Source: a virus
Virus record (IMG/VR): IMGVR_UViG_3300009158_000097
Coordinates: 1-39,126 of that record
DNA: 39,126 bases
Direction: 5' to 3' (one strand)
In this document: positions 21,559 through 39,126 of the stretch, one piece after another
How the letters are laid out: the number at the start of each line of letters is the position of its first letter
How positions within the stretch are numbered: position 1 is the first letter of the stretch
Made by a program: the position numbers and the translations under genes
Notes under the pieces: generated by a model
Database searches by the model: none
What the model was told of the DNA's origin: nothing
What the model saw: the letters and a program-made list of their open reading frames with translations, nothing else

Positions 21559-21631
21559 GGTACTAAAGCTAACTAGGTAGAAGCGCCAGACTGAAAATCT
21601 GGAGGAATTGGGTCGATACCAATTAGTACCA
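21559..21631 (+). tRNA. tRNA-Phe(GAA)
   Basis: Acceptor GGTACTA/TAGTACC, anticodon arm CCAGA-CTGAAAA-TCTGG, discriminator A. CCA is not fully encoded. Confidence 0.9.
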
Positions 21632-21701
21632 CACAAAAACATAAAAATGAAACGAAAATGATAGCGCCACTTTGAAATACGAGTGGCAAACTTTAAAGAA
21701 T

Positions 21702-21773
21702 GCGCTTGTAACTCAGAGGCAGAGTACTCGGCTTTTAACCGAGGTGTCGAGATTTCGAAATTCTCCGGGCGCA
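21702..21773 (+). tRNA. tRNA-Lys(TTT)
   Basis: Acceptor GCGCTTG/CGGGCGC, anticodon arm CTCGG-CTTTTAA-CCGAG, T loop TTCGAAA, A73. Confidence 0.9.
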
Positions 21774-21779
21774 CAGTAA

Positions 21780-21836
21780 GAAAACAAATATACGTCAAAA
21801 AGCTTTAAAATGTCGATTATTTTGTTTACTTTTATA
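21780..21836 (+). promoter_or_regulatory. cassette promoter block, TATACGTC subtype
   Basis: GAAAACAAATATACGTC...AAAATGTCGA, box TACTTTTATA at 21827-21836; serves 21863. Confidence 0.7.
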
Positions 21837-21862
21837 ATATAGCAAACAACAAACAGCAAGAC

Positions 21863-22108
21863 ATGAAGCAGAGAGACATATTGATGGTATTCATAGACAG
21901 GATGAAACGACTTGGGATAGAAGTAAAGCTCACGGGTAATTTTCCTTGGATATATGTTGATAGTGTGAATGGGAGGAGAATAAAAAAGGAAGATTACTTT
22001 TGCGGCAACCATGGATTTACTATAGCATTTATGCCAATAAAGCCAGGACAAGAATTGAAATTCACAGACATAAGAGAACTTTTTAAACTCATAAGAAAAT
22101 ATAGATAA
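21863..22108 (+). CDS. conserved small phage protein
   Basis: 81 residues (RDILMVFIDRMKRLGIEVKL, GNFPWIYVDSVNGRRIKKED, FCGNHGFTIAFMPI). The order 'G N x P W I Y ... V N G ... E x F ... H G F T' recurs in phage proteins of unknown function. The next gene starts one base after the stop. Confidence 0.65.
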   Translation: MKQRDILMVFIDRMKRLGIEVKLTGNFPWIYVDSVNGRRIKKEDYFCGNHGFTIAFMPIKPGQELKFTDIRELFKLIRKYR

Positions 22109-22109
22109 T

Positions 22110-22493
22110 ATGACAAGCGTACTAACTTTAGAAGATCTGCAAGAAAAGACAGAAGCTGAGATCATTAGACATTTGACTCAAGAGTATGGAGATGGTGATG
22201 GATCTGCTCTTGATAATAAAGAGGTTCTGATAGCATACGAGTCTGTTGGTTCGTGGGGATGCGATTCAAGCTCATTCTTCCTTCTGAGAGATAAGACATC
22301 AGGAGAGTTATTTGAGATCCATGGGTCACACTGTTCTTGCTATGGATTCGAGGGACAGTTGAATTTAGAATCTTCTTCAATATCGTCTCTTAAGTATAGA
22401 AATCGTGAAGGGTGCGTATTTAGCACTGGTGGATATGACGGAGATGAGACAGAAAATAAAAGAGCTGTAGATGAGTTTATAAAAAGTTTATAA
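22110..22493 (+). CDS. conserved GSWGCDSSSFFLL protein
   Basis: 127 residues. YESVGSWGCDSSSFFLLRDK (residues ~43-62) and EIHGSHCSCYGFEGQL (~68-83) are the core of a widespread phage protein of unknown function; the invariant Cys residues suggest metal binding or structure. The C-terminus is a helix after a gapped acidic loop. Confidence 0.75.
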   Translation: MTSVLTLEDLQEKTEAEIIRHLTQEYGDGDGSALDNKEVLIAYESVGSWGCDSSSFFLLRDKTSGELFEIHGSHCSCYGFEGQLNLESSSISSLKYRNREGCVFSTGGYDGDETENKRAVDEFIKSL

Positions 22494-22497
22494 AAAG

Positions 22498-22569
22498 CGT
22501 GCGTAGCTCAAATGGCAAGAGTATCGGCTTCCAAACCCGAGGATGAAGGTTCGAATCCTTACGTGCGCG
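22498..22569 (+). tRNA. tRNA-Trp(CCA)
   Basis: Acceptor GCGTGCG/CGTGCGC, G73 as typical for Trp. Anticodon arm TCGGC-TTCCAAA-CCCGA with a C-C mismatch next to the loop, so the anticodon read is CCA. Confidence 0.8.
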
Positions 22570-22575
22570 CATAAT

Positions 22576-22648
22576 ACCCACATAGTTCAACGGATCAGAA
22601 CACTTGGCTACGGACCAAGAGATAGGAGTTCGAATCTCTTTGAGGGTA
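22576..22648 (+). tRNA. tRNA-Arg(ACG)
   Basis: Acceptor ACCCACA/TGAGGGT (one mismatch), anticodon arm CTTGG-CTACGGA-CCAAG, A73. A34 would need host deamination to inosine. Confidence 0.85.
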
Positions 22649-22654
22649 CAATAA

Positions 22655-22726
22655 GGTTGATTGGCCGAGTGACTTAGGCGCAAGTCTGCAAAACTTGCTA
22701 CATAGGTTTGAATCCTATATCGACCT
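22655..22726 (+). tRNA. tRNA-Cys(GCA)
   Basis: Acceptor GGTTGAT/ATCGACC, anticodon arm CAAGT-CTGCAAA-ACTTG, T73 as usual for Cys. Confidence 0.9.
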
Positions 22727-22760
22727 CAGCGTGATCTTTGACATATTGGAAAGTAAATAT

Positions 22761-22835
22761 CTAGACGTAGTTTTAATACGCGCAAAACTCTCGGTTTGGG
22801 ACCGAGGATTACCAGTTCGAATCTGGTCGTTTAGA
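22761..22835 (+). tRNA. tRNA-Pro(TGG)
   Basis: Acceptor CTAGACG/CGTTTAG, D arm AGTTT/AAACT, anticodon arm CTCGG-TTTGGGA-CCGAG, A73. Confidence 0.88.
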
Positions 22836-22877
22836 CAGTGGTTTGGTGCCATTAGACTTCAGGGAAACGGCACAAAT

Positions 22878-22949
22878 AGTCCCTTAGCTCAACGGGAGAG
22901 CACTTGGCTTACATCCAAGAGGTTGTGATATCGTAATTCACAGGGACTA
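22878..22949 (+). tRNA. tRNA-Val(TAC)
   Basis: Acceptor AGTCCCT/AGGGACT, anticodon arm CTTGG-CTTACAT-CCAAG, A73. The T loop (ATCGTAA) departs from the TTCRANY norm. Confidence 0.85.
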
Positions 22950-22994
22950 CATAAAGATGAACTCGCGGCGCACTTTTCAAAAGCCTCGCGCCCT

Positions 22995-23068
22995 GCAAAA
23001 TTAGTATAGCGGTAGTACACTAGCCTTCCAAGCCTGTGGCGTCAGTTCGATTCTGACATTTTGCTCCA
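22995..23068 (+). tRNA. tRNA-Gly(TCC)
   Basis: Acceptor GCAAAAT/ATTTTGC, loop CTTCCAA as in bacterial Gly(TCC), T73 and an encoded CCA. The anticodon stem has two mismatches. Confidence 0.85.
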
Positions 23069-23123
23069 GTTCACATTTTCAATTCGTTCAGGTTTCTTGA
23101 ACATGTAGAAAAAATGAACACAT

Positions 23124-23195
23124 AGTCGCTTAGTATAAAGGCTAACACGTCAGGTTTTGGTCCTGAAGATAGTGGTTCGATACCATTAGCGACTA
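23124..23195 (+). tRNA. tRNA-Gln(TTG)
   Basis: Acceptor AGTCGCT/AGCGACT, anticodon arm TCAGG-TTTTGGT-CCTGA, T loop TTCGATA, A73. Confidence 0.88.
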
Positions 23196-23262
23196 CGAAA
23201 AATCAAACATATAAGTGACGACCTCGTATGCTCTTGTTGACACTCTGGAAAGACAGAGACTG

Positions 23263-23345
23263 GGTAGTGTAATGCGTAATGGGAAAGCGGTTTATCTCAT
23301 CCATATTTGGTTGCATCGTCATAGGTTCGAATCCTATCGCTATCA
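23263..23345 (+). tRNA. tRNA, isotype uncertain, perhaps CAT
   Basis: Acceptor GGTAGTG/CGCTATC and T arm ATAGG-TTCGAAT-CCTAT are good, A73. At 83 nt it has class II length. The best anticodon loop is CTCATCC (CAT), closed by only three pairs, and C37 is unusual. It is either degenerate or unusually folded. Confidence 0.55.
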
Positions 23346-23351
23346 CTATAC

Positions 23352-23423
23352 GGGTCTTGAAGCTTTAAGGTGAAGCGCATGTTTGTGGAGCATGATAACT
23401 CGGTTCGATACCATGCTAGACCC
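23352..23423 (+). tRNA. tRNA-His(GTG)
   Basis: Anticodon arm CATGT-TTGTGGA-GCATG. It has C73 opposite an extra 5' G, the His identity pair. Acceptor GGTCTTG/CTAGACC with one mismatch. Confidence 0.88.
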
Positions 23424-23431
23424 CAAAAAAA

Positions 23432-23518
23432 GGAAGATAGGCGAATGTTGGTTTGTCGTACATGTCTGCTAAACATGATGGTGTAAAAGCTACGAGAGTT
23501 CGATCCTCTCATCTTCCG
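23432..23518 (+). tRNA. tRNA-Ser(GCT)
   Basis: Acceptor GGAAGAT/ATCTTCC, anticodon arm CATGT-CTGCTAA-ACATG, long variable arm, T arm GAGAG-TTCGATC-CTCTC, G73 as for Ser. Confidence 0.9.
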
Positions 23519-23523
23519 CACAT

Positions 23524-23595
23524 GGAACTATAGTAGAATGGTTAGCACACCTGCCTGATAAGTAGGTAATTCAAGTTCAAATCTTGATAGTTCCA
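23524..23595 (+). tRNA. tRNA-Ile(GAT)
   Basis: Acceptor GGAACTA/TAGTTCC, anticodon arm CCTGC-CTGATAA-GTAGG, A73. Confidence 0.9.
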
Positions 23596-23603
23596 CATAA
23601 ATT

Positions 23604-23679
23604 GGTTATATGGCGCAGATGTTAGCGCAACATACTTTTAATCTTTTGGTCGTAGGTTCGATCCCTACTATACCCGCCA
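23604..23679 (+). tRNA. tRNA, probably Lys(TTT), degenerate
   Basis: Acceptor GGTTATA/TATACCC with one mismatch, T arm GTAGG-TTCGATC-CCTAC, G73 plus encoded CCA. The loop CTTTTAA gives TTT, but the anticodon stem pairs at only three of five positions, and G73 is unusual for Lys. The isotype is uncertain. Confidence 0.6.
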
Positions 23680-23696
23680 CTAAAAAGATAGTTTGA

Positions 23697-23726
23697 TAAT
23701 TGTCAAGATCTTTTAGTACTTTTATA
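23697..23726 (+). promoter_or_regulatory. promoter inside tRNA cluster
   Basis: TAATTGTCAAG and box TACTTTTATA (23717-23726), 15 bases before tRNA-Tyr. The long upstream block of the cassette type is missing. Confidence 0.6.
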
Positions 23727-23741
23727 ATACAGTAAAACAAT

Positions 23742-23825
23742 GGGGGTAATGCTCGAGTTGGTTAGGCGTGGGACTGTAAATCTCATAATCCGCATGGATG
23801 GTAGGTTCGATTCCTTCTACTCCCA
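23742..23825 (+). tRNA. tRNA-Tyr(GTA)
   Basis: Acceptor GGGGGTA/TACTCCC, anticodon arm TGGGA-CTGTAAA-TCTCA, class II variable arm, A73. Confidence 0.9.
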
Positions 23826-23829
23826 CATT

Positions 23830-23901
23830 GGTCTTTTAGTGAAATGGCTATCATACTGCACTGTCGATGCAGAGTAGACGGATCGAAACCGTCATGGACC
23901 G
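23830..23901 (+). tRNA. tRNA-Asp(GTC)
   Basis: Acceptor GGTCTTT/ATGGACC, anticodon arm CTGCA-CTGTCGA-TGCAG, G73 as for Asp. Confidence 0.9.
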
Positions 23902-23908
23902 CATTTTT

Positions 23909-23982
23909 GTACCTTTAGCTCAGTTGGTTAGAGCGCCGGCCTCATAAGCCGTAGGTCACAGGTTCAAACCCTGTATGGTACA
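23909..23982 (+). tRNA. tRNA-Met(CAT), elongator-like
   Basis: Acceptor GTACCTT/ATGGTAC, anticodon arm CCGGC-CTCATAA-GCCGT. It lacks the three G-C pairs of initiators. It could instead be an Ile2 tRNA whose C34 is modified. Confidence 0.85.
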
Positions 23983-23984
23983 CA

Positions 23985-24117
23985 TTAGCCCGAAGGCCAA
24001 GGGATCGAAGATAGGAAAGTCTGGTTAAGGTGGATAGTATCCACTACCAGCCACTAAACCTCTGGATCGTATGCCAGCACAGTTAGCAACTCTGGGGATA
24101 ATCTAAAAGTTGCAATT
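23985..24117 (+). other. spacer with hairpins between tRNAs
   Basis: 133 bases without gene or clear tRNA. GTGGATAGTATCCAC is a tight hairpin nested within CTGG...CCAG, and GCAACT near 24089 pairs with AGTTGC near 24109. It is longer than other spacers in the cluster and may be a small RNA or a decayed tRNA pair. Confidence 0.4.
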
Positions 24118-24192
24118 GGACGCGTAGTTTAATCGGAAAAATACTTGCCTTGTAAGCATGAGTCCCCGGGTCGGTTCCGGGTGTGTCCTCCA
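24118..24192 (+). tRNA. tRNA-Thr(TGT)
   Basis: Acceptor GGACGCG/TGTGTCC, loop CTTGTAA, T arm CCCGG-GTCGGTT-CCGGG, T73 with encoded CCA. Confidence 0.88.
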
Positions 24193-24204
24193 AAAATTAA
24201 AGTC

Positions 24205-24435
24205 ATGAAACAACCAAAGACAATAAAGATCAAACCGGGCTCAGAGAAAACTTTATACAAACTTCCAGATACTCCTATTGCTTGTAAATTACAGGAGAGG
24301 GAGATCGGAGATGAATCAAAGATAGTATACATAGTCAATCCAAAGTATCTAAAAGATTCAAAAGATCCAATAACAGCTTCACCATATCTCGCATTTACGC
24401 ATAATGAGTATGAGGTGGTTGATTGGACAGAATAA
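24205..24435 (+). CDS. hypothetical protein
   Basis: 76 residues from the ATG at 24205; the frame opens earlier within tRNA-Thr, which cannot be coding. KTIKIKPGSEKTLYKLPDTP, ESKIVYIVNPKYLKDSKD: beta-rich, basic. Sits between tRNA-Thr and tRNA-Arg. No family recognised. Confidence 0.6.
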   Translation: MKQPKTIKIKPGSEKTLYKLPDTPIACKLQEREIGDESKIVYIVNPKYLKDSKDPITASPYLAFTHNEYEVVDWTE

Positions 24436-24441
24436 TATTTT

Positions 24442-24514
24442 GGCTTTGTAGTATAATGGACCAGTACGGGGAGCTTCTACCTCCCAAGTTCAAGTTCGAT
24501 CCTTGACAAAGCTA
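24442..24514 (+). tRNA. tRNA-Arg(TCT)
   Basis: Acceptor GGCTTTG/CAAAGCT, anticodon arm GGGAG-CTTCTAC-CTCCC, A73. Confidence 0.9.
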
Positions 24515-24536
24515 CACTTTTAAAACATACAACATA

Positions 24537-25151
24537 ATGAAGATCACGCTAAAAGAAGGTCAGGGTATATTCTTTACCTCAGATACGCACATAAATCACA
24601 AGAATATTTGTCGAGGAGTAACTTCTTGGACTGGGGATTTAAATAGGACTCGGGATTTTGATAGTCTGGAAAGGATGAACTCTACTATAATCGACAACAT
24701 AAACAGTCGAGTTGGTCAAGACGATATCTTGATTCACCTTGGAGACTTCTCTTTCGGTGGTCACCAGCATATCCCAGAGTTTCGTCAGCGCATTATTTGT
24801 CAGAATATAGTATTTATATTGGGAAACCATGATGAGCATATCCAGAAGAACACAGATAATTATCAGTCATTATTCTCCTCAGTACAACATTACTTAGAAC
24901 TTGAGGTCAATGGTAGCAAATTTGTCCTAAGTCACTTTCCTATAGCATCTTGGAATAATATGAGCAAGGGGTCTATGCATCTTCACGGTCATGTTCACTT
25001 TGATAAGACAATGAAACTTGGACCAGGAAAGATGCTCGATATTGGAGTGGACGGTAATAATTTTATTCCGTATTCTTTACGAGAAGTGATTGGATTACTA
25101 AAAGATAGACCTATTAAATCTCTATTTAAAGTTGATCACCACGAACATTGA
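24537..25151 (+). CDS. calcineurin-like metallophosphoesterase
   Basis: 204 residues. All five metal-binding blocks are present: SDTH (15-18), GDFS (69-72), GNHDE (96-100), SHFP (132-135) and HGHVH (150-154). This is the YfcE/phage-type single-domain phosphoesterase layout, expected to cleave phosphodiesters or phosphomonoesters with two metal ions. Lying among tRNAs and followed by a P-loop kinase, it may take part in RNA end processing (inference). The substrate is unknown. Confidence 0.9.
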   Translation: MKITLKEGQGIFFTSDTHINHKNICRGVTSWTGDLNRTRDFDSLERMNSTIIDNINSRVGQDDILIHLGDFSFGGHQHIPEFRQRIICQNIVFILGNHDEHIQKNTDNYQSLFSSVQHYLELEVNGSKFVLSHFPIASWNNMSKGSMHLHGHVHFDKTMKLGPGKMLDIGVDGNNFIPYSLREVIGLLKDRPIKSLFKVDHHEH

Positions 25152-25175
25152 TTTTTCTTTTTGAGAATAAACCGT

Positions 25176-25185
25176 TACTTTTATA
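25176..25185 (+). promoter_or_regulatory. promoter box TACTTTTATA
   Basis: Two bases before the ATG at 25188, which fixes the start of the kinase gene. Confidence 0.6.
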
Positions 25186-25187
25186 AC

Positions 25188-25592
25188 ATGGAAAAGGTAT
25201 TAATAATTTTACGAGGACTTCCAGGATGCGGTAAAAGTTCATTTGCAAAGATGATTTGGTCAGAGCATGCGATATGTGAGGCTGATCAGTATTGGTATGA
25301 TAAGGATGGTAACTATAACTTTGATGCTTCCAAGTTGAGACAGGCGCATGAATGGTGTCAAGCCAAAGTAAGACAATTCATGGAAGATCATCAAATCAAT
25401 GGAGAGATAGTAGTCTCAAATACAAGCACGACTGAGAAGGAACTCCAACCATATCTTGATCTCGCAAATGAATATGGGTATAAAGTAGTCTCTTTGATAG
25501 TAGAAAACAGACATGGAAACTCAAATGTACACAGTGTACCCCAGGAGACTCTACAGAAGATGAAAGACAGATTTCAAATAAAGCTGATATGA
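25188..25592 (+). CDS. AAA_33-type P-loop kinase
   Basis: 134 residues. Walker A GLPGCGKS (10-17), an acidic site EADQYW (31-36), RQAHEWC (51-57), and NTSTTEKELQPYLDLA, followed by a C-terminal VHSVPQETLQKMKDRFQ lid. This is the layout of small phage AAA_33/polynucleotide-kinase-like proteins that phosphorylate nucleic-acid ends or nucleosides. The start at 25188 is preferred to 25161, which lies inside the promoter. Neighbouring phosphoesterase, cREC and distant RNA ligase suggest an RNA-repair role. Confidence 0.85.
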   Translation: MEKVLIILRGLPGCGKSSFAKMIWSEHAICEADQYWYDKDGNYNFDASKLRQAHEWCQAKVRQFMEDHQINGEIVVSNTSTTEKELQPYLDLANEYGYKVVSLIVENRHGNSNVHSVPQETLQKMKDRFQIKLI

Positions 25593-25708
25593 TAAGCAGA
25601 CTAATAAAGATATTCAATCACGAAGTTTGGATGATATGCGGGAAATGTGGATTAGAGTATGATGCTCGAAGATCAGAATATTGCGACTCATGCAGACATA
25701 AAAACTAA
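25589..25708 (+). CDS. zinc-ribbon peptide
   Basis: 39 residues. ICGKCGLEYDARRSEYCDSC gives two C-x2-C knuckles (Cys 17, 20, 32, 35) of a zinc ribbon. Overlaps the kinase stop by four bases (ATGA) and ends two bases before the helicase start, so it is embedded in this operon. Probably a nucleic-acid or protein adaptor. Confidence 0.65.
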   Translation: MISRLIKIFNHEVWMICGKCGLEYDARRSEYCDSCRHKN

Positions 25709-25710
25709 AA

Positions 25711-27438
25711 ATGACTTTATCATATAGAGAGTTCGACAATTTCGTTAAGTTAAAATTCCCAGGTTTCAAGTACAGAAAAGGTCAGAGAGATGCGATCGAG
25801 GATATCATTAAGAGCTATAACCTCAATAAAAATGGAGTGTATCTTTTGGACGCCCCTACTGGTTCTGGTAAGTCACTGATAGGTATTTTATTTTCAGCCT
25901 TTATGGCAAGCAGAGGTAAAAAAGGCTACATTCTGACTTCGGACATTAGTCTACATGATCAATATACGAGAGACTTTTCGAAGTACGGTCTTATAAATTG
26001 GGGACAGATCAAGGGAGTAGATAATTACAATTGCACGCTCAATAACGAAAAGTTTTCAATAGGTGAATGTAAAAATAAAGGACTAAATTATCAAGAATCC
26101 GAAAAGCTTAATTGCTATAATGCATGTGGGTATTTCCAATCAAGGAAAAAAGCCATAAGCGCAGATGTATCACTCTTGACTTACTCATATGGTTTGATAC
26201 AAAGAAACTTCGTAGAGGACAAATCACAAAATGGATCAGCATTCGAGCAGAGAGACTTTGTAGTATGTGATGAGGCTCATAAGGTAGTTGAATTAGTTCA
26301 AAGTCACTTTAGTCCAAAGTTAAGCAAAAAAACTGCAGAGAATGTACTTAAATTGACTTTAGGTTTAGCAGATATAGGCTTTCCTAATGTTCTGATACCA
26401 GTAGATCAGCTCAAAGAGACAATAGATGATATTGTACATGAAGAGGATAAAAACGTCCTCTTGAAGCACCTGAAGCGCTCTATGATTATCCTAGGTAAAG
26501 CTCAGTCTTATAGAGACGAAGTTCAAAAGGACGCTAAAGACCGGTTTGGCAGCGAAAATGTGCCAAGTAACTGGAAAGCTGTATTTAAGAATTTTGACTA
26601 TGTGAAAGATGTGCTTTGTAAGGTTGAAGATTATATAGAGATAATCGAGAAGAGTGGACTACATTTCATGATAAAGGCGATGAAAGACGATGAGGCAACA
26701 TTCAACTGTCTTGATGAGAGATATTTGATGGAGAAGCACTTCCTGAATAGATTTGGTTTCAAGTTACTAATGACTGCGACTATGGGATCAAAGACCGAAT
26801 TCGAGAGTAGCATAGGAGCAAAGAAGACATTTTATAGAAAGATGGATTCTATCTTTGATTTCTCAAGATCTCCAATATATTTTTATCCAAAAAGAAGGAT
26901 GGGATTGAAAGATATCGAAAAGAATATGCCCTGGTTAGTGAAGACAGTATCAGATATTATGGACGCGCATCCTACAGAGTCTGGAGTTATACATTCTGGG
27001 TCATATGATCTTGGCAATAAGCTTCTCTATCGACTATCAAAAGCAAAGCAAAAGAGGATCCATGTTTATAAAGGTACTGAGGAGAAGATGGATAGTCTTA
27101 AGAAGTTCATTGATACCCCAGGTAATATTCTTATAGGTCCATCGCTCTTAGAAGGTTTGGATCTCAAGGATGATAAAAGTCGCTTACAGATATTCTTAAA
27201 AGTGCCTTATCCTAATTTGGGCGATAAGTATGTTTCTGAGAAGATGAAATATTCCAAGGGTTGGTATAGTTGGAAGACATGCACTTCGATACTTCAAGGA
27301 ATAGGAAGATCAGTAAGGTCAGAGGAAGATTGGGCCGTTACTTATTTCCTTGATGGATGTTTAACAGATTTGATAACTAGATCAGCAGATAATTTTCCAG
27401 ATGAATTCTTGGAGAGGATAATTATAAAAGAAGATTAA
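25711..27438 (+). CDS. DinG/XPD-like Fe-S helicase
   Basis: 575 residues. Walker A DAPTGSGKS (47-55), DEAH box (187-190), and in the C-terminal half GVIHSGSYDLGNKL, LEGLDLKDDKSR and the arginine-finger motif QGIGRSVRSEEDW. Four cysteines between motifs I and II (108, 120, 135, 139) fit the Fe-S cluster of superfamily 2 XPD/DinG helicases, which move 5'-3' and resolve structured DNA or R-loops. The start two bases after the zinc-ribbon gene implies an operon. Confidence 0.9.
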   Translation: MTLSYREFDNFVKLKFPGFKYRKGQRDAIEDIIKSYNLNKNGVYLLDAPTGSGKSLIGILFSAFMASRGKKGYILTSDISLHDQYTRDFSKYGLINWGQIKGVDNYNCTLNNEKFSIGECKNKGLNYQESEKLNCYNACGYFQSRKKAISADVSLLTYSYGLIQRNFVEDKSQNGSAFEQRDFVVCDEAHKVVELVQSHFSPKLSKKTAENVLKLTLGLADIGFPNVLIPVDQLKETIDDIVHEEDKNVLLKHLKRSMIILGKAQSYRDEVQKDAKDRFGSENVPSNWKAVFKNFDYVKDVLCKVEDYIEIIEKSGLHFMIKAMKDDEATFNCLDERYLMEKHFLNRFGFKLLMTATMGSKTEFESSIGAKKTFYRKMDSIFDFSRSPIYFYPKRRMGLKDIEKNMPWLVKTVSDIMDAHPTESGVIHSGSYDLGNKLLYRLSKAKQKRIHVYKGTEEKMDSLKKFIDTPGNILIGPSLLEGLDLKDDKSRLQIFLKVPYPNLGDKYVSEKMKYSKGWYSWKTCTSILQGIGRSVRSEEDWAVTYFLDGCLTDLITRSADNFPDEFLERIIIKED

Positions 27439-27491
27439 TTATATCTTATAGTAGTCTGGTTACGTCAAACATAACTATGGTGATATGAAAT

Positions 27492-27576
27492 GCTCCGATG
27501 ATGAAATTGGTAGACAGCGCAGACTTAGGATCTGCGGTCGTAAGACGTGCGGGTTCGAATCCCGCTTGGAGCACCA
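27492..27576 (+). tRNA. tRNA-Leu(TAG)
   Basis: Acceptor GCTCCGA/TTGGAGC, anticodon arm GCAGA-CTTAGGA-TCTGC, class II variable arm, T arm GCGGG-TTCGAAT-CCCGC, A73, encoded CCA. Confidence 0.93.
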
Positions 27577-27589
27577 AAAATATAAAAAT

Positions 27590-28018
27590 ATGGAAAAGAC
27601 TTGGATATATCTAGATGATGTAAGAACTCCAGTAGCGAGTAATTTAGATAAAATGTGGACTATTGTAAGAAATTACGATGAGTTTATTTCAAAGGTTTCT
27701 GAAATTGGTCTTGATAATATTGAGGTCATATCGTTAGATCATGATCTTGGAGACTCGGCGATGGCAGAATTCTATACAAACGTATCTCCAAATTACAAGC
27801 TTGACTATATTAATATAACCGAGAAGACTGGGATGGATTGCGCAAAGTGGTTAGTAAATCTAAGTATAGAAACACAAGTTCCGTTACCGCAAATATATAC
27901 ACATAGCGCGAATCCAATAGGTAGTGCCAATATCATGGGTTACGTAAATAATTATCTAATGAGAAGTAGACTACCTCAGAGTTGCATTAGAGTACAAATA
28001 AATCACACAGTATCATGA
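27590..28018 (+). CDS. cyclic-phosphate processing receiver (cREC) protein
   Basis: 142 residues from the ATG at 27590; the frame opens within tRNA-Leu, which is not coding. YLDDVRTP (7-14), SLDHDLG (48-54) and TGMDCAKWLV near 79-88 are the hallmarks of the cREC domain, a receiver-like fold predicted to act in RNA repair with kinases, ligases and phosphoesterases. In this window all those partners are present. Stop overlaps the next gene by four bases. Confidence 0.85.
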   Translation: MEKTWIYLDDVRTPVASNLDKMWTIVRNYDEFISKVSEIGLDNIEVISLDHDLGDSAMAEFYTNVSPNYKLDYINITEKTGMDCAKWLVNLSIETQVPLPQIYTHSANPIGSANIMGYVNNYLMRSRLPQSCIRVQINHTVS

Positions 28019-28473
28019 AAGATTTTAAGACGCTATATGACAAGAAAAGTGTAGATATCATAAATTATATCAAGGGTTACTTAAGTTCTCACAAAGACAT
28101 AGAGATATTGATAGGGTGTGATTCTCAGGTAAAAGGTAGAGAGACTGTGTATGCACTAGTTTTGGCTATGTATACTCCAGGTAAGGGCGCTCATGTTTTA
28201 TATGATAGGTTTACTACTCCAAAAGATAGAGAGATATCAACTAGACTTATGAATGAAGTATGGCACTCTATAAATCTCGCTGATGAATTGATGAATGCTG
28301 GACTTCCAAGAGCAAAGTACATCGATATAGATCTAAATCCAGATCCGAGATATAAATCAAATGAAGTTTTAAGAGCTGCGGTTGGTTGGGCAGAAGGACT
28401 CGGGTATTCAGTAAGACATAAGGGAGATTCTCCCATGATGACATATTGCGCCGATCTTCTGGTTAAGTCTTGA
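28015..28473 (+). CDS. YkuK/DUF458-type RNase H-like protein
   Basis: 152 residues. IEILIGCDSQVKGRETVYAL (residues 29-48) carries the first catalytic Asp. It is followed by RLMNEVWHSINLADEL, YIDIDLNPD and a final AVGWAEGLGYSVRHKGDS: the YkuK-like RNase H fold. A nuclease or nucleic-acid-binding role is inferred from the fold. Coupled to the cREC gene by ATGA overlap. Confidence 0.8.
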   Translation: MKDFKTLYDKKSVDIINYIKGYLSSHKDIEILIGCDSQVKGRETVYALVLAMYTPGKGAHVLYDRFTTPKDREISTRLMNEVWHSINLADELMNAGLPRAKYIDIDLNPDPRYKSNEVLRAAVGWAEGLGYSVRHKGDSPMMTYCADLLVKS

Positions 28474-28486
28474 TATTTATATTCGC

Positions 28487-28834
28487 ATGGCATCACACGT
28501 ACTTTCTTTTAAAAATCAAGAGGAGTTCTTCCAAAAGATAAAGGATAAAGATAGAGACCTTATAGTTAAGATGGTCAAGACAGTGTTATATGCAATCAAA
28601 CATAAGAAGTCTAAGGTGGATGTATTCGAGGTTATATTCACTGATATCAAATATTATAGGGATCGGAAAGAGTTGATATTTACAAAGGATAAGAAAGATT
28701 ATATTCCTACTTTAAAAGCGGCAATGGATGAATTAATTAAATTTGAGGAATATGAATTGTGCGCAGAGATCAAGGAATTACTTGATAAAAAGAAAAAAAG
28801 AAACTCGAAAGAAAAACTACCTTTTTTAAATTAA
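28487..28834 (+). CDS. hypothetical protein with UVR-like tail
   Basis: 115 residues, lysine-rich. The C-terminal EEYELCAEIKELLDKKKKRN resembles the UVR motif of UvrB/UvrC and ClpC (YE.AA.IRD.I..L). The N-terminal part is helical and unassigned. It is the last protein gene before the tmRNA. Confidence 0.6.
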   Translation: MASHVLSFKNQEEFFQKIKDKDRDLIVKMVKTVLYAIKHKKSKVDVFEVIFTDIKYYRDRKELIFTKDKKDYIPTLKAAMDELIKFEEYELCAEIKELLDKKKKRNSKEKLPFLN

Positions 28835-28840
28835 AAGACG

Positions 28841-28850
28841 TATATTTATA
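28841..28850 (+). promoter_or_regulatory. promoter box TATATTTATA for tmRNA
   Basis: AAAGACG lead-in and box, 19 bases before the mature tmRNA 5' end; the leader would be removed by RNase P. Confidence 0.55.
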
Positions 28851-28869
28851 GCATATAAAGCACAAAATT

Positions 28870-29261
28870 GGGGCATACTGGTTTTGACAGCAATAGAGCT
28901 CTTTGAGATGATGCAAGCAGTGCTAGATTGGACGCACTTTAATCTACCTATCAAAACACAAATGCAAACGTAGAACTTTCTACATGGACATTCGAAGATG
29001 CTATGGCATTCTGCGAAGGTGAGCTAGCAGTGGCTGCCTAAGTCCTTGGGCCGGTGCACATACGCCTAGAAACAGAAGTGCCTTCAGAGGGAGCTAAGAG
29101 ATTTACCCGCTGTAAAAAAAGAATACTCGGTAGGTTTTTGGTAACAATCGTACGAGAAGAGGAACCAATATTTTGTCTAGTTAGAAAACGAGAATAAGCT
29201 TGTGAATGAGTCTAATTGATAACATTGTTTGGACGAGGGTTCGAATCCCTCATGCTCCACC
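28870..29261 (+). ncRNA. ssrA: transfer-messenger RNA (tmRNA)
   Basis: The 5' end GGGGCAT pairs with ATGCTCC at the 3' end with a G3-U70 pair and A73, the alanyl-tRNA synthetase identity elements. The T arm GAGGG-TTCGAAT-CCCTC is intact and CC is encoded. A tag frame begins GCA-AAC at 28964 and stops with TAA at 29041: 25 residues starting ANVELSTWTF and ending ELAVAA. It rescues stalled ribosomes and tags products for proteolysis. The tag is much longer than the usual 8-15 residues and ends AVAA rather than ALAA. Pseudoknots were not resolved by eye. Confidence 0.93.
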
Positions 29262-29325
29262 GGGATCAGAAAATAAAATATCTGATTACACAAAACAAAG
29301 ATTGCAAAAATTAGAGAAGTTTTAG

Positions 29326-29335
29326 TACTTTTATA
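29326..29335 (+). promoter_or_regulatory. promoter box TACTTTTATA
   Basis: Box after the tmRNA; its transcript would start near 29342 and enter the small-RNA candidate. Confidence 0.6.
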
Positions 29336-29341
29336 ATATAG

Positions 29342-29417
29342 CAATCAAATAAAGATGATCGGCGAAAAAGGGGCTGATGACAACAATATAGATGTTGACA
29401 ACCTACGATCATTTTTT
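29342..29417 (+). ncRNA. candidate ~75-nt small RNA
   Basis: ATGATCG (29355-29361) pairs with CGATCAT (29406-29412), extendable by A-U pairs, followed by six T: a terminator-like closing stem around about 45 bases. A promoter box sits directly upstream. An ORF of 27 codons from 29355 runs into the next tRNA and is unlikely. Confidence 0.5.
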
Positions 29418-29428
29418 AAAAATTATAT

Positions 29429-29501
29429 TGCGCTGTAGAGCAGTGGTTAGCTTATCGGGCTCATAACCCGAGGGTCGTGGGTTCGAATCCCACTGGCGCA
29501 A
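29429..29501 (+). tRNA. initiator-like tRNA-Met(CAT)
   Basis: Anticodon arm TCGGG-CTCATAA-CCCGA has the three consecutive G-C pairs that mark initiator tRNAs. Acceptor TGCGCTG/TGGCGCA starts with a weak U1-A72 pair instead of the usual C1-A72 mismatch. A73, CC encoded. Confidence 0.9.
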
Positions 29502-29535
29502 CCGAATTAAATTAAAAGGTTTTAAATTAAAAAGT

Positions 29536-29715
29536 ATGAAAAAGATTGTAATTTTTAGAAAAGAAGAAGGCAATCCAGATAAGGTTGTTTTAAGAGCAAT
29601 AACCCCCTCAACTGCTTGGCAGGGTTATACAAAAGCTGGAGTTGTAATTGATGCAGAGGCTAAAAATCTCGCAAGAGCGTTAGAACCTAGCTTTACGGGG
29701 TACTATCTCGCATAA
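29536..29715 (+). CDS. hypothetical protein
   Basis: 59 residues (MKKIVIFRKEEGNPDKVVLR, then TPSTAWQGYTKAGVVIDAEA and SFTGYYLA). Small alpha/beta protein between two tRNAs. No family recognised. Confidence 0.6.
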   Translation: MKKIVIFRKEEGNPDKVVLRAITPSTAWQGYTKAGVVIDAEAKNLARALEPSFTGYYLA

Positions 29716-29721
29716 AACATT

Positions 29722-29793
29722 GCTCCCATCATCTAGCGGTTAGGATGACAGGTTTTCGACCTGTTTACACGAGTTCGAATCTCGTTGGGAGTA
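29722..29793 (+). tRNA. tRNA-Glu(TTC)
   Basis: Acceptor GCTCCCA/TGGGAGT, anticodon arm ACAGG-TTTTCGA-CCTGT, T arm ACGAG-TTCGAAT-CTCGT, A73. Confidence 0.9.
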
Positions 29794-29818
29794 CTAACCA
29801 AATAAAAACAAAAACAAA

Positions 29819-37083: not shown

Positions 37084-38226
37084 ATGGAAAATCAAAACTC
37101 AGTAGCGTTTGTAGCAAAAATCTCAGAGATAAAAGAAATCCCAGGAGCTGATAATATAGAACAAGCATTTCTAGGAGGATGGTCTTGCATAGTAAAAAAA
37201 GGCGCACATAAGCTAAACGAACTTGTAATATGCGCTACGACAGATGCAGTAATACCAGATGATCTCGCTGAAAAGATGAATATCACAAGTTACCTTAGAA
37301 GTGGCAATCGTGTTCGTACTGTAAAGCTACGCGGTGTCTACTCAGAGTGTCTTATCATACCAAAAACTCTAATTAATATAGACTGGAATAGGTCTATATA
37401 TGTGGGAAAAGATATGATGGAAGCTCTTGGTATTTACAAATATGAAGCGCCAGTAAAGCAAATCCAAATCCAACTCGCATCAGGAAAGAAGGTACAATAT
37501 TATGAGAATCCAAACTTTCTGGTCTACTACAAGTTCCCAAATATTAAGAATGTCAAGGGTATGTTTAATGAAGAGGACTTGGTTCAGATTACAAGAAAGT
37601 TGCATGGTACAAACGCTAGGTATGGTATTGTCAAGAAGAAAAATATCTCGCTTTGGGATAAAATTAAACGGTTCCTTAAGATTACAGATGAGTGGTATGA
37701 GTATGAGTTTGTAGTGGGATCTCATAATGTAGAAAAGGGATCAGATTCTCAAGGCTTCTATGACTCAAACGTCTGGTATACAATCGCTGATAAGTATAAG
37801 ATCAAGGAAAAACTATGGAAATTTGCAAAGCAGTATTCAACTCCTAAAATCTTTGGTTCCGGATTTGTAATATACGGTGAGATCTACGGAGTGGGTATAC
37901 AGAAGAATTATGAGTACGGTCTTAAGGAGATTGAGTTTGCTGTATTTGATATCATGGAAAATGGTCACTACTATGGCACAGAAACAACTTTTGCAGCAAC
38001 AACAGCATTATTGGAACTTCCCCACGTTGATGTTTTATATAAAGGAAATTGGTCCCAAGAAATTCAAGATCGATATGTCCTAAATAATTTTATCCCAGGC
38101 ACAAAAGTTCCACATGAAGGTGTAGTTATCAAGTACTTATCAGGGAGACGAGACAAGATCGCAAAAGTAATAAATCCAGATTATTTGATTCACGGAGAAA
38201 AGCACGACATAGGAGATTCGCACTAA
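37084..38226 (+). CDS. Rnl5-type (DRB0094-like) RNA ligase
   Basis: 380 residues. An N-terminal OB-like domain (residues ~8-120, ending SECLIIPKTL), then the nucleotidyltransferase core: motif I TRKLHGTNAR (Lys172 as the adenylated residue), motif III VIYGEIYG, motif IV HEGVVIK and motif V AKVINP. This order, with an N-terminal OB domain, matches the DRB0094/Rnl5 RNA ligases. These ATP-dependent enzymes seal 3'-OH/5'-phosphate RNA ends. With the kinase, cREC and phosphoesterases it forms a possible tRNA-repair set. Confidence 0.92.
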   Translation: MENQNSVAFVAKISEIKEIPGADNIEQAFLGGWSCIVKKGAHKLNELVICATTDAVIPDDLAEKMNITSYLRSGNRVRTVKLRGVYSECLIIPKTLINIDWNRSIYVGKDMMEALGIYKYEAPVKQIQIQLASGKKVQYYENPNFLVYYKFPNIKNVKGMFNEEDLVQITRKLHGTNARYGIVKKKNISLWDKIKRFLKITDEWYEYEFVVGSHNVEKGSDSQGFYDSNVWYTIADKYKIKEKLWKFAKQYSTPKIFGSGFVIYGEIYGVGIQKNYEYGLKEIEFAVFDIMENGHYYGTETTFAATTALLELPHVDVLYKGNWSQEIQDRYVLNNFIPGTKVPHEGVVIKYLSGRRDKIAKVINPDYLIHGEKHDIGDSH

Positions 38227-38693: not shown

Positions 38694-39126
38694 ATGAAAA
38701 TTCAAGCGCTATTTATATCAGATGTACATCTTGGTAGTAGAGGCTCAAATGCTGATAAGGTATTAGAGGTACTCAAGTTATATAAACCGGATACTCTTTT
38801 CATAGTCGGAGATTTTATAGATGGTTGGCTTCTCAAAAAAAGACACTATTGGAAGCAAGACTATACAAATCTCATTAGAAAGATACTTAAACTTTCTAAG
38901 AATGGGACTAAGGTAGTCTATATTACAGGCAACCATGATGAATTTCTAAGACACTATGTACCTCTTGAATTTGACATAAATATCATAATCAGAGATGAAT
39001 ATATTTGGAATGGATATTATATCACACACGGGGATCTTTATGATGGAGTTATGAATCTTAAATGGCTTGCGCATCTTGGAACTTGGGGATACGAATGTGC
39101 GATCATTTTAGACAGGTTTATGAAAC
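38694..39126 (+). CDS. LpxH-like metallophosphoesterase (partial)
   Basis: 144 codons, open at the window end. FISDVHLGSRGSNADKVLEV (residues 7-26), VGDFIDGW (39-46), TGNHDEFLR (80-88) and ITHGDLYDG (111-119) match the UDP-2,3-diacylglucosamine hydrolase-like (LpxH/YbbF) subfamily, in which a D-V-H-L-G start is typical. The next blocks lie outside the window. It is the third phosphoesterase here and from a third subfamily. Substrate unknown. Confidence 0.85.
   Translation, partial: MKIQALFISDVHLGSRGSNADKVLEVLKLYKPDTLFIVGDFIDGWLLKKRHYWKQDYTNLIRKILKLSKNGTKVVYITGNHDEFLRHYVPLEFDINIIIRDEYIWNGYYITHGDLYDGVMNLKWLAHLGTWGYECAIILDRFMK

What the first reader, a model, noticed from the sequence alone, without database searches (positions are those of the whole stretch)
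28870..29261. Phage tmRNA with an unusually long tag of its own
The tRNA-like ends, G3-U70 pair and T arm are intact. The tag frame gives 25 residues (ANVELSTWTF ... ELAVAA), longer than typical host tags and ending AVAA. A phage could use it to rescue ribosomes after mRNA cleavage, to steer tagged products to different proteases, or to disturb host quality control.
Basis: partly seen in the sequence, partly recalled or inferred. Interest (0 to 1): 0.75.

Follow-up and report, generated by a model that had tools for sequence, protein, structure and literature searches.

The report
Phage tmRNA family with long tags
This phage carries its own ribosome-rescue RNA whose protein tag is 25 residues long instead of the usual 10 or so, and the long tag is kept by natural selection across dozens of related phages but was not found in any bacterium searched, which suggests that phages add their own extra signal to rescued proteins.

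Summary
Window 28870-29262 is a complete one-piece tmRNA (ARAGORN; Rfam RF00023, 81.5 bits) with tag ANVELSTWTFEDAMAFCEGELAVAA. The resume codon is not misplaced. Eighteen other IMG/VR phage records, found with a pattern that fixes residues 2-8, all give a 25-residue tag in the same frame. A second search blind to the tag found 39 distinct loci whose tags (23-26 residues) share the core S-[ST]-x-T-[FWYIV]-E-D-A-[ML]-[AS]-F, ending mostly A-[VIM]-A-A. The core changes mainly at third codon positions (pN/pS 0.30, against 2.0 and 4.4 in the other frames). The acceptor stem with G3-U70 and pseudoknot 1 covary. Two DNA patterns for the tag found no bacterial tmRNA among 84,980 genomes. Seven relatives also encode SmpB; synteny puts the window's copy about 260 bases past its end. 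Phage tmRNA and SmpB are already known, as are long tags (Mycoplasma, where the tag goes to Lon). The new part is a phage-specific, conserved tag extension. Most likely it is trans-translation run with a phage degron: a ClpX-type C-terminus plus a second recognition module. That last step is inferred.

The parts
28837..28851 (+). upstream element GACGTATATTTATAG, 19 bases before the tmRNA; possible promoter
   Evidence: identical in the window and in L004, whose flanks are otherwise diverged; GTATATTTATA with up to 1 mismatch occurs 5 times in the window against 2.5 expected, so the motif is not a proven promoter
28870..29262 (+). one-piece tmRNA (ssrA)
   Evidence: ARAGORN; Rfam RF00023 81.5 bits, full length
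28870..28876 (+). acceptor stem 5' strand GGGGCAU, pairs with 29252-29258 AUGCUCC, G3-U70
   Evidence: 14 distinct acceptor stems in the family, all fully paired, all with G3-U70; shuffled partners pair 74% on average, 87% at most
28919..28952 (+). pseudoknot 1: S1 28919-28923 AGUGC / 28934-28938 GCACU; S2 28926-28931 GAUUGG / 28947-28952 CCUAUC (one mismatch)
   Evidence: S1 in 10 sequence variants, 91.7% paired against 73% mean and 90% maximum in 2000 shuffles; the Rfam alignment places the S2 arms in the same region
28964..29041 (+). tag reading frame: resume codon GCA 28964-28966, 25 codons ANVELSTWTFEDAMAFCEGELAVAA, stop UAA 29039-29041
28976..29011 (+). conserved tag core L-S-T-W-T-F-E-D-A-M-A-F (the 12-codon block analysed)
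   Evidence: 24 distinct nucleotide versions, pN/pS 0.30 in frame against 1.99 and 4.36 in the other frames; 0 of 150 column shuffles as low
29046..29081 (+). PK2-like pseudoknot: S1 29046-29051 UUGGGC / 29064-29069 GCCUAG; S2 29056-29059 GCAC / 29078-29081 GUGC
   Evidence: knot at the same place in most members with different paired letters (for example UCACU/AGUGA, CACAU/AUGUG, GCAACU/AGUUGC); only 8 of 30 single sequences beat shuffles at 5%
29235..29251 (+). T arm GAGGG UUCGAAU CCCUC
21559..29794 (+). array of 21 tRNA genes that includes the tmRNA gene
   Evidence: ARAGORN
37084..38226 (+). RNA ligase (PF09414, phrog_968), downstream gene
   Evidence: in L004 the homologous gene is followed 20 bases later by smpB
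38694..39126 (+). metallophosphoesterase cut by the window end; in relative L080 the same gene is followed by smpB, so smpB would start near 39385, outside the window
   Evidence: 98% identical to L080 5822-6253, with smpB at L080 6513-6935

Best explanation
The gene makes a working phage tmRNA. Charged with alanine through G3-U70, it enters ribosomes stalled on cut or stopless mRNAs during infection. It probably works with a phage SmpB in the window's subgroup and with host SmpB in the other relatives. It adds a 25-residue tag and frees the ribosome at the UAA. Shown here: the gene is complete, the tRNA-like domain and PK1 are kept by compensatory changes, and the tag core is selected as protein. 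Inferred: the C-terminal ..AVAA is a ClpX-type degron, and the conserved extension (STWTFEDAMAF) is a second recognition module. That module would be bound by a host or phage adaptor or by another protease, so tagged proteins are handled in a phage-specified way. With the many tRNAs and the RNA ligase, it would be part of a kit that keeps translation going when RNA is cleaved in the infected cell.
For: Full RF00023 match. The window and all 18 other records found with a tag pattern have exactly 25 residues in the same frame, although the pattern fixed only residues 2-8. A tag-blind search gave 39 distinct core-tag loci of 69 not truncated. pN/pS 0.30 against 1.99 and 4.36 in the shifted frames; column-shuffle null mean 1.14, minimum 0.54, 0 of 150. 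Acceptor stem and PK1 covariation. SmpB in L004 and in six further records with this tag or with a tmRNA 3' end like it, 53-68% identical to that of L004, matching solved SmpB structures (1p6v, E = 8e-30). tRNA array and RNA ligase nearby. Long-tag precedent for re-targeting to another protease in Mesoplasma (PMC8138137).
Against: No experiment. No partner of the extension is known: no SspB (0 of 20 records) and no Lon (0 of 15). A ClpP-like gene occurs in only 5 of 33 records, and phage ClpP-like proteins are often head-maturation proteases (general knowledge). The tag's first residues and its length vary. smpB was not found in 26 other core-tag records, though most are fragments, and in the window it is inferred from synteny only. 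An amphipathic-helix test of the core was not significant.
Confidence: 0.6

Rival explanations
1. Ordinary trans-translation with a long spacer: the extension only gives the protease a longer unfolded handle, and its sequence is not recognised by anything.
For: The C-terminus keeps the usual [YFL]A[VMI]AA form; lengths drift between 23 and 26 and the first 4-7 residues vary. Template changes after the resume codon are tolerated in E. coli (PMC2481249).
Against: A spacer needs composition, not the fixed residues S-T-x-T-x-E-D-A-[ML]-[AS]-F kept while third codon positions change.
Confidence: 0.2
2. The long tag marks proteins for a fate other than destruction, or hides them from host proteases, for example by binding a phage protein, so that the tag acts as a functional peptide.
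For: The core is unusual, was found only in phages in the collections searched, and is more conserved than the residues just before the end (..GELAVAA..GELEMAA..AESMVHA).
Against: Nearly all members still end in AA with a ClpX-type C-terminus; no such partner was found.
Confidence: 0.12
3. The tmRNA and its tag were taken from a bacterial host lineage that uses the same long tag, so it is a host tag in a phage.
For: Some phages in the tag-blind set carry short tags of host type (GEYNYAIAA, GVNNYALAA), so exchange with hosts may happen. Many host lineages are poorly sampled.
Against: Two DNA patterns for the tag found no tmRNA in 84,980 species genomes; the single hit is a sulfatase-like protein.
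Confidence: 0.07
4. An inactive relic or an inhibitor of host tmRNA, like the bare tRNA-like domain of phage DS6A.
For: An inhibitor of that kind is known in phage DS6A (PMC4131195).
Against: Frame under purifying selection, stop codon kept with UAA/UAG exchange, paired stems with compensatory changes.
Confidence: 0.03

Closest known systems
Phage-encoded tmRNAs (mycobacteriophage Bxz1 and relatives, Bacillus phage G, Methylophilales phage Melnitz, Crassvirales)
   Same: complete ssrA gene in a phage genome; reported in 402 of 18,146 phage genomes (PMC9004378) and in PMC4131195
   Different: the other phage tags read here are shorter: 13-14 aa in Crassvirales and phage G (AKLNITNNELQVA), 10 aa in huge phage LR756500 (GNNAEMRMAA); the Crassvirales genes are permuted (RF04321). 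Mycobacteriophage tags could not be read here.
tmRNA plus SmpB in huge phages (Al-Shayeb et al. 2020, PMC7162821)
   Same: both components reported in huge phage genomes; SmpB of LR745206 is 52.5% identical to that of L004
   Different: the passages read there do not describe tag sequences; the tag family described here has no tblastn match in the phage records that include those genomes
Long ssrA tags of Mycoplasma/Mesoplasma (Gur and Sauer 2008, via PMC8138137 and PMC10873288)
   Same: tag differing in length and sequence from typical bacterial tags (a 27-residue derivative is in use); it is read by a different protease, Lon
   Different: unrelated sequence; host genome, not phage; Mesoplasma has no ClpXP, whereas nothing is known of the proteases of this phage's host
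Canonical bacterial tmRNA (Rfam RF00023)
   Same: one-piece form, tRNA-like domain, PK1, resume context, stop codon
   Different: tag 25 aa instead of the modal 10 (PMC11915505); weak match to the model in the PK2-PK4 part

Membership tests
tmRNA (RF00023) | covariance-model match over the whole model | tested here: met
   81.5 bits, positions 1-374, gathering score 47
tmRNA (RF00023) | alanine acceptor stem with G3-U70 and T arm | tested here: met
   present; 14 acceptor variants in the family, all paired with G3-U70; ARAGORN itself probably selects for paired acceptors
tmRNA (RF00023) | pseudoknots flanking the tag frame | tested here: met
   PK1 with covariation; PK2-like knot by homologous position only; PK3 and PK4 not tested formally
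tmRNA (RF00023) | tag frame with conserved A at -4 of the resume codon, stop codon, small C-terminal residues | tested here: met
   ..CAAAU|GCA, UAA stop..AVAA
tmRNA (RF00023) | RNA is expressed, charged and tags proteins | not testable with these tools
   needs RNA and protein from infected cells
phage tmRNA-SmpB pair | smpB in the same phage genome | tested here: inconclusive
   absent from the 39 kb window but present in 7 relatives; synteny places it about 260 bases past the window end
Mycoplasma-type long tag read by Lon | long tag with an extension conserved as protein | tested here: met
   25 aa; pN/pS 0.30 in the core
Mycoplasma-type long tag read by Lon | extension recognised by Lon instead of ClpXP | not testable with these tools
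   no phage Lon in 15 related records; host unknown

The most novel reading that the evidence does not exclude
A lineage of large phages has evolved its own trans-translation degron: an 11- to 15-residue module in front of a ClpX-type tail, recognised by a specific adaptor or protease and in one subgroup paired with a phage SmpB, so that proteins from stalled ribosomes are routed by the phage rather than by the host.
Probability: 0.4. Interest if true: 0.75.

Novelty: new variant of a known kind. Interest (0 to 1): 0.57.

Why it matters
Why phages carry tmRNA is an open question. Proposals include helping the host machinery and degrading host proteins. Here the tag itself has been under selection in phages, at residues that rescue alone does not need, so part of the answer must lie in what happens to the tagged proteins. 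That makes the question directly testable with a 25-residue peptide fused to a reporter. It may also yield a new degron-adaptor pair.

Tried and rejected
Resume codon elsewhere with a short tag: rejected, because the frame is conserved from codon 2 onward in all members. ARAGORN itself mis-starts the tag in L056, L102, L121, L124 and L163 (short calls such as AEYAVAA), which the family comparison corrects. Tag taken from bacteria: two genome scans, no tmRNA (the one hit, L190, is a sulfatase-like protein). The same motif elsewhere in phage proteins, as a mimic: none in the held loci. Amphipathic helix in the core: moment not above shuffles. Phage SspB or Lon as the partner: none found. ClpP-like protease as the partner: 5 of 33 records, not linked to the tmRNA, left open. 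The conserved TATATTTATA element as a phage promoter: only weakly enriched. Single-sequence pseudoknot scores against shuffles were mostly not significant, so the PK1 case rests on comparison between sequences. The mycobacteriophage tmRNAs could not be read: their records are not held under the accessions tried.

Full report
What is there. ARAGORN and Rfam agree on one complete, one-piece tmRNA at 28870-29262 on the + strand. The acceptor stem GGGGCAU/AUGCUCC has G3-U70; the T arm is intact; the discriminator is A and the 3' end reads ACCG, so CCA must be added after transcription. The tag frame runs from GCA at 28964 to UAA at 29039-29041 and gives ANVELSTWTFEDAMAFCEGELAVAA, 25 residues. The window is an IMG/VR virus record of 39,126 bases. 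It carries 21 tRNA genes, a phage helicase, an RNA ligase and several phosphoesterases. Its helicase is 85% identical to that of a 158 kb IMG/VR phage contig, L004.

Is the long tag real? L004 carries a tmRNA in the same place with tag AKVELSTWTVEDALAFVDGEYAVAA. A DNA pattern for residues 2-8 of the tag found 18 viral records (one of them the L004 contig). In every one the frame is exactly 25 codons, though the pattern did not fix the length or the remaining residues. To avoid that bias, a second pattern was taken from the 3' strand of helix H2, which says nothing about the tag. It found 103 stretches, 76 of them distinct. Seven are cut off at the contig end. Of the other 69, 39 have a tag with the core S-[ST]-x-T-[FWYIV]-E-D-A-[ML]-[AS]-F or a close variant of it, 23-26 residues in all; 12 have other tags and 18 were not called by ARAGORN. 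The first few residues vary in number and kind (ANVEL-, AVEL-, DVEL-, AEEL-, DEK-, GEEK-, GNT-, AKKVEL-) and the end is usually [DE]-[YFL]-A-[VIM]-A-A. Because the second pattern came from this tmRNA lineage, these numbers describe the lineage, not phages in general.

Selection on the tag. For 24 distinct versions of a 12-codon core block, third codon positions differ most (0.44 mean pairwise difference, against 0.21 and 0.13 at first and second positions). pN/pS is 0.30 in frame and 1.99 and 4.36 in the two other frames; shuffling the columns gives a mean of 1.14 and never a value as low as the observed one in 150 trials. Six of the twelve codons were used to recognise the core; the six that were not still give 0.54. 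The sequences share ancestry, so the pairs are not independent observations, but frame-specific conservation of this kind is not expected from RNA structure.

Structure. Fourteen distinct acceptor stems in the core-tag family are fully paired, against 74% on average and 87% at most with shuffled partners; all keep G3-U70. ARAGORN looks for paired acceptors, so this partly reflects how the loci were found. Stem 1 of PK1 occurs in ten versions (AGUGC/GCACU, AGGGUU/AACCCU, CGUGUU/AACACG and others) and is 91.7% paired, above all 2000 shuffles. A PK2-like knot lies at the same place after the stop codon in most members with different paired letters, but only 8 of 30 single sequences beat shuffles at 5%. 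PK3 and PK4 were not tested formally. The base at -4 of the resume codon is A, which is the main frame determinant in E. coli (PMC2481249).

SmpB. L004 encodes an SmpB (PF01668, E = 2e-47) 5.3 kb downstream of its tmRNA and 20 bases after an RNA ligase gene. Six more records of the same subgroup encode one. Its best PDB match is an SsrA-binding protein (1p6v, E = 8e-30). In the window the last gene is a metallophosphoesterase cut by the end of the record. It is 98% identical to its counterpart in L080, where smpB starts about 260 bases further on. The window's phage therefore most likely has smpB just outside the record. In 26 other core-tag records no SmpB was found; most are fragments, but some exceed 100 kb, so those phages probably use the host's SmpB.

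Phage-specific? The tag pattern and the core pattern were each searched in genomes of 84,980 bacterial and archaeal species. The first found nothing; the second found one sulfatase-like protein and no tmRNA. tblastn of a consensus-like tag found nothing in 50,697 phage and 72,556 plasmid records. The patterns demand particular residues, so divergent host versions could be missed, and the host is unknown. Two tags in the tag-blind set (GEYNYAIAA, GVNNYALAA) look like Bacteroidota host tags from memory; this was not tested.

Mechanism. Shown: the gene is complete, its tRNA-like domain and PK1 are kept by compensatory change, and the tag core is selected as protein. Established for the family: such a molecule with SmpB rescues stalled ribosomes and tags the protein. 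Inferred..AVAA acts as a ClpX-type degron, and the conserved extension is read by something else. The best precedent is the long tag of Mesoplasma, which is read by Lon (PMC8138137). No partner was found: no SspB, no Lon, and a ClpP-like gene in only 5 of 33 records. The tRNA array and the RNA ligase fit a phage kit against RNA cleavage, but that is context, not proof.

Known and new. Phage tmRNAs are known (402 of 18,146 phages in PMC9004378; PMC4131195), tmRNA with SmpB in huge phages is known (PMC7162821), and the modal tag length is 10 (PMC11915505). No description of this tag family was found, though the paper library is open-access only and the tmRNA database itself could not be searched. 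It is best called a new variant of a known kind.

Noticed in passing
L046:1957-2399, L047:1945-2394, L048:1948-2333, L049:1940-2386: Crassvirales genomes carry permuted tmRNA genes (Rfam RF04321 in two of them) with 13-14 residue tags such as GNFYVTDYTRIAA; RAGATH-9 and hatchet ribozyme matches lie within about 1.8 kb upstream.
   Followed up: partly
L105, L107, L116, L189 (tag-blind set): Other long tags without the core: GESFVNADGKVFYMDTTAVSYDEPVLMAA (29), GNTNFWSLVNAGVSTPVTEELLAA (24), GNTSFWSIVNESLVNESVEELALVA (25), AKALYVIENMHNISTSAKVEAVEYAYAA (28). Long tags may have arisen more than once in phages.
   Followed up: no
L130, L140, L125, L111, L152, L157: tmRNA-like loci with an odd T arm (for example GACACGUUGGGCAGUACAACGUCAUCUCCAC) that ARAGORN does not call; the T loop lacks UUCGA.
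   Followed up: no
L053, L060, L062: tmRNAs with the conserved 25-residue tag but a rearranged tRNA-like domain (acceptor GGGCCCG/CGGGUCC in L062, altered T loop) not called by ARAGORN; L053 and L062 resume at GUA (Val) instead of GCA.
   Followed up: partly
L004:10869-11343, 3' end: The L004 tmRNA has discriminator U73 instead of A73, unusual for an alanine acceptor.
   Followed up: no
L197 and L194 (phage records G001 and G023): ClpP-like protease beside glycosyltransferase-like genes, similar gene order in two phages that carry the long-tag tmRNA; could be a head protease or a partner of the tag.
   Followed up: partly
window 28837-28851: GACGTATATTTATAG upstream of the tmRNA is identical in L004; candidate phage promoter or processing element.
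   Followed up: partly
L077:2165-2240 and L078:485-560: tRNA-like gene with a four-base anticodon call (ccta) at the place of a tRNA-Met in the window.
   Followed up: no
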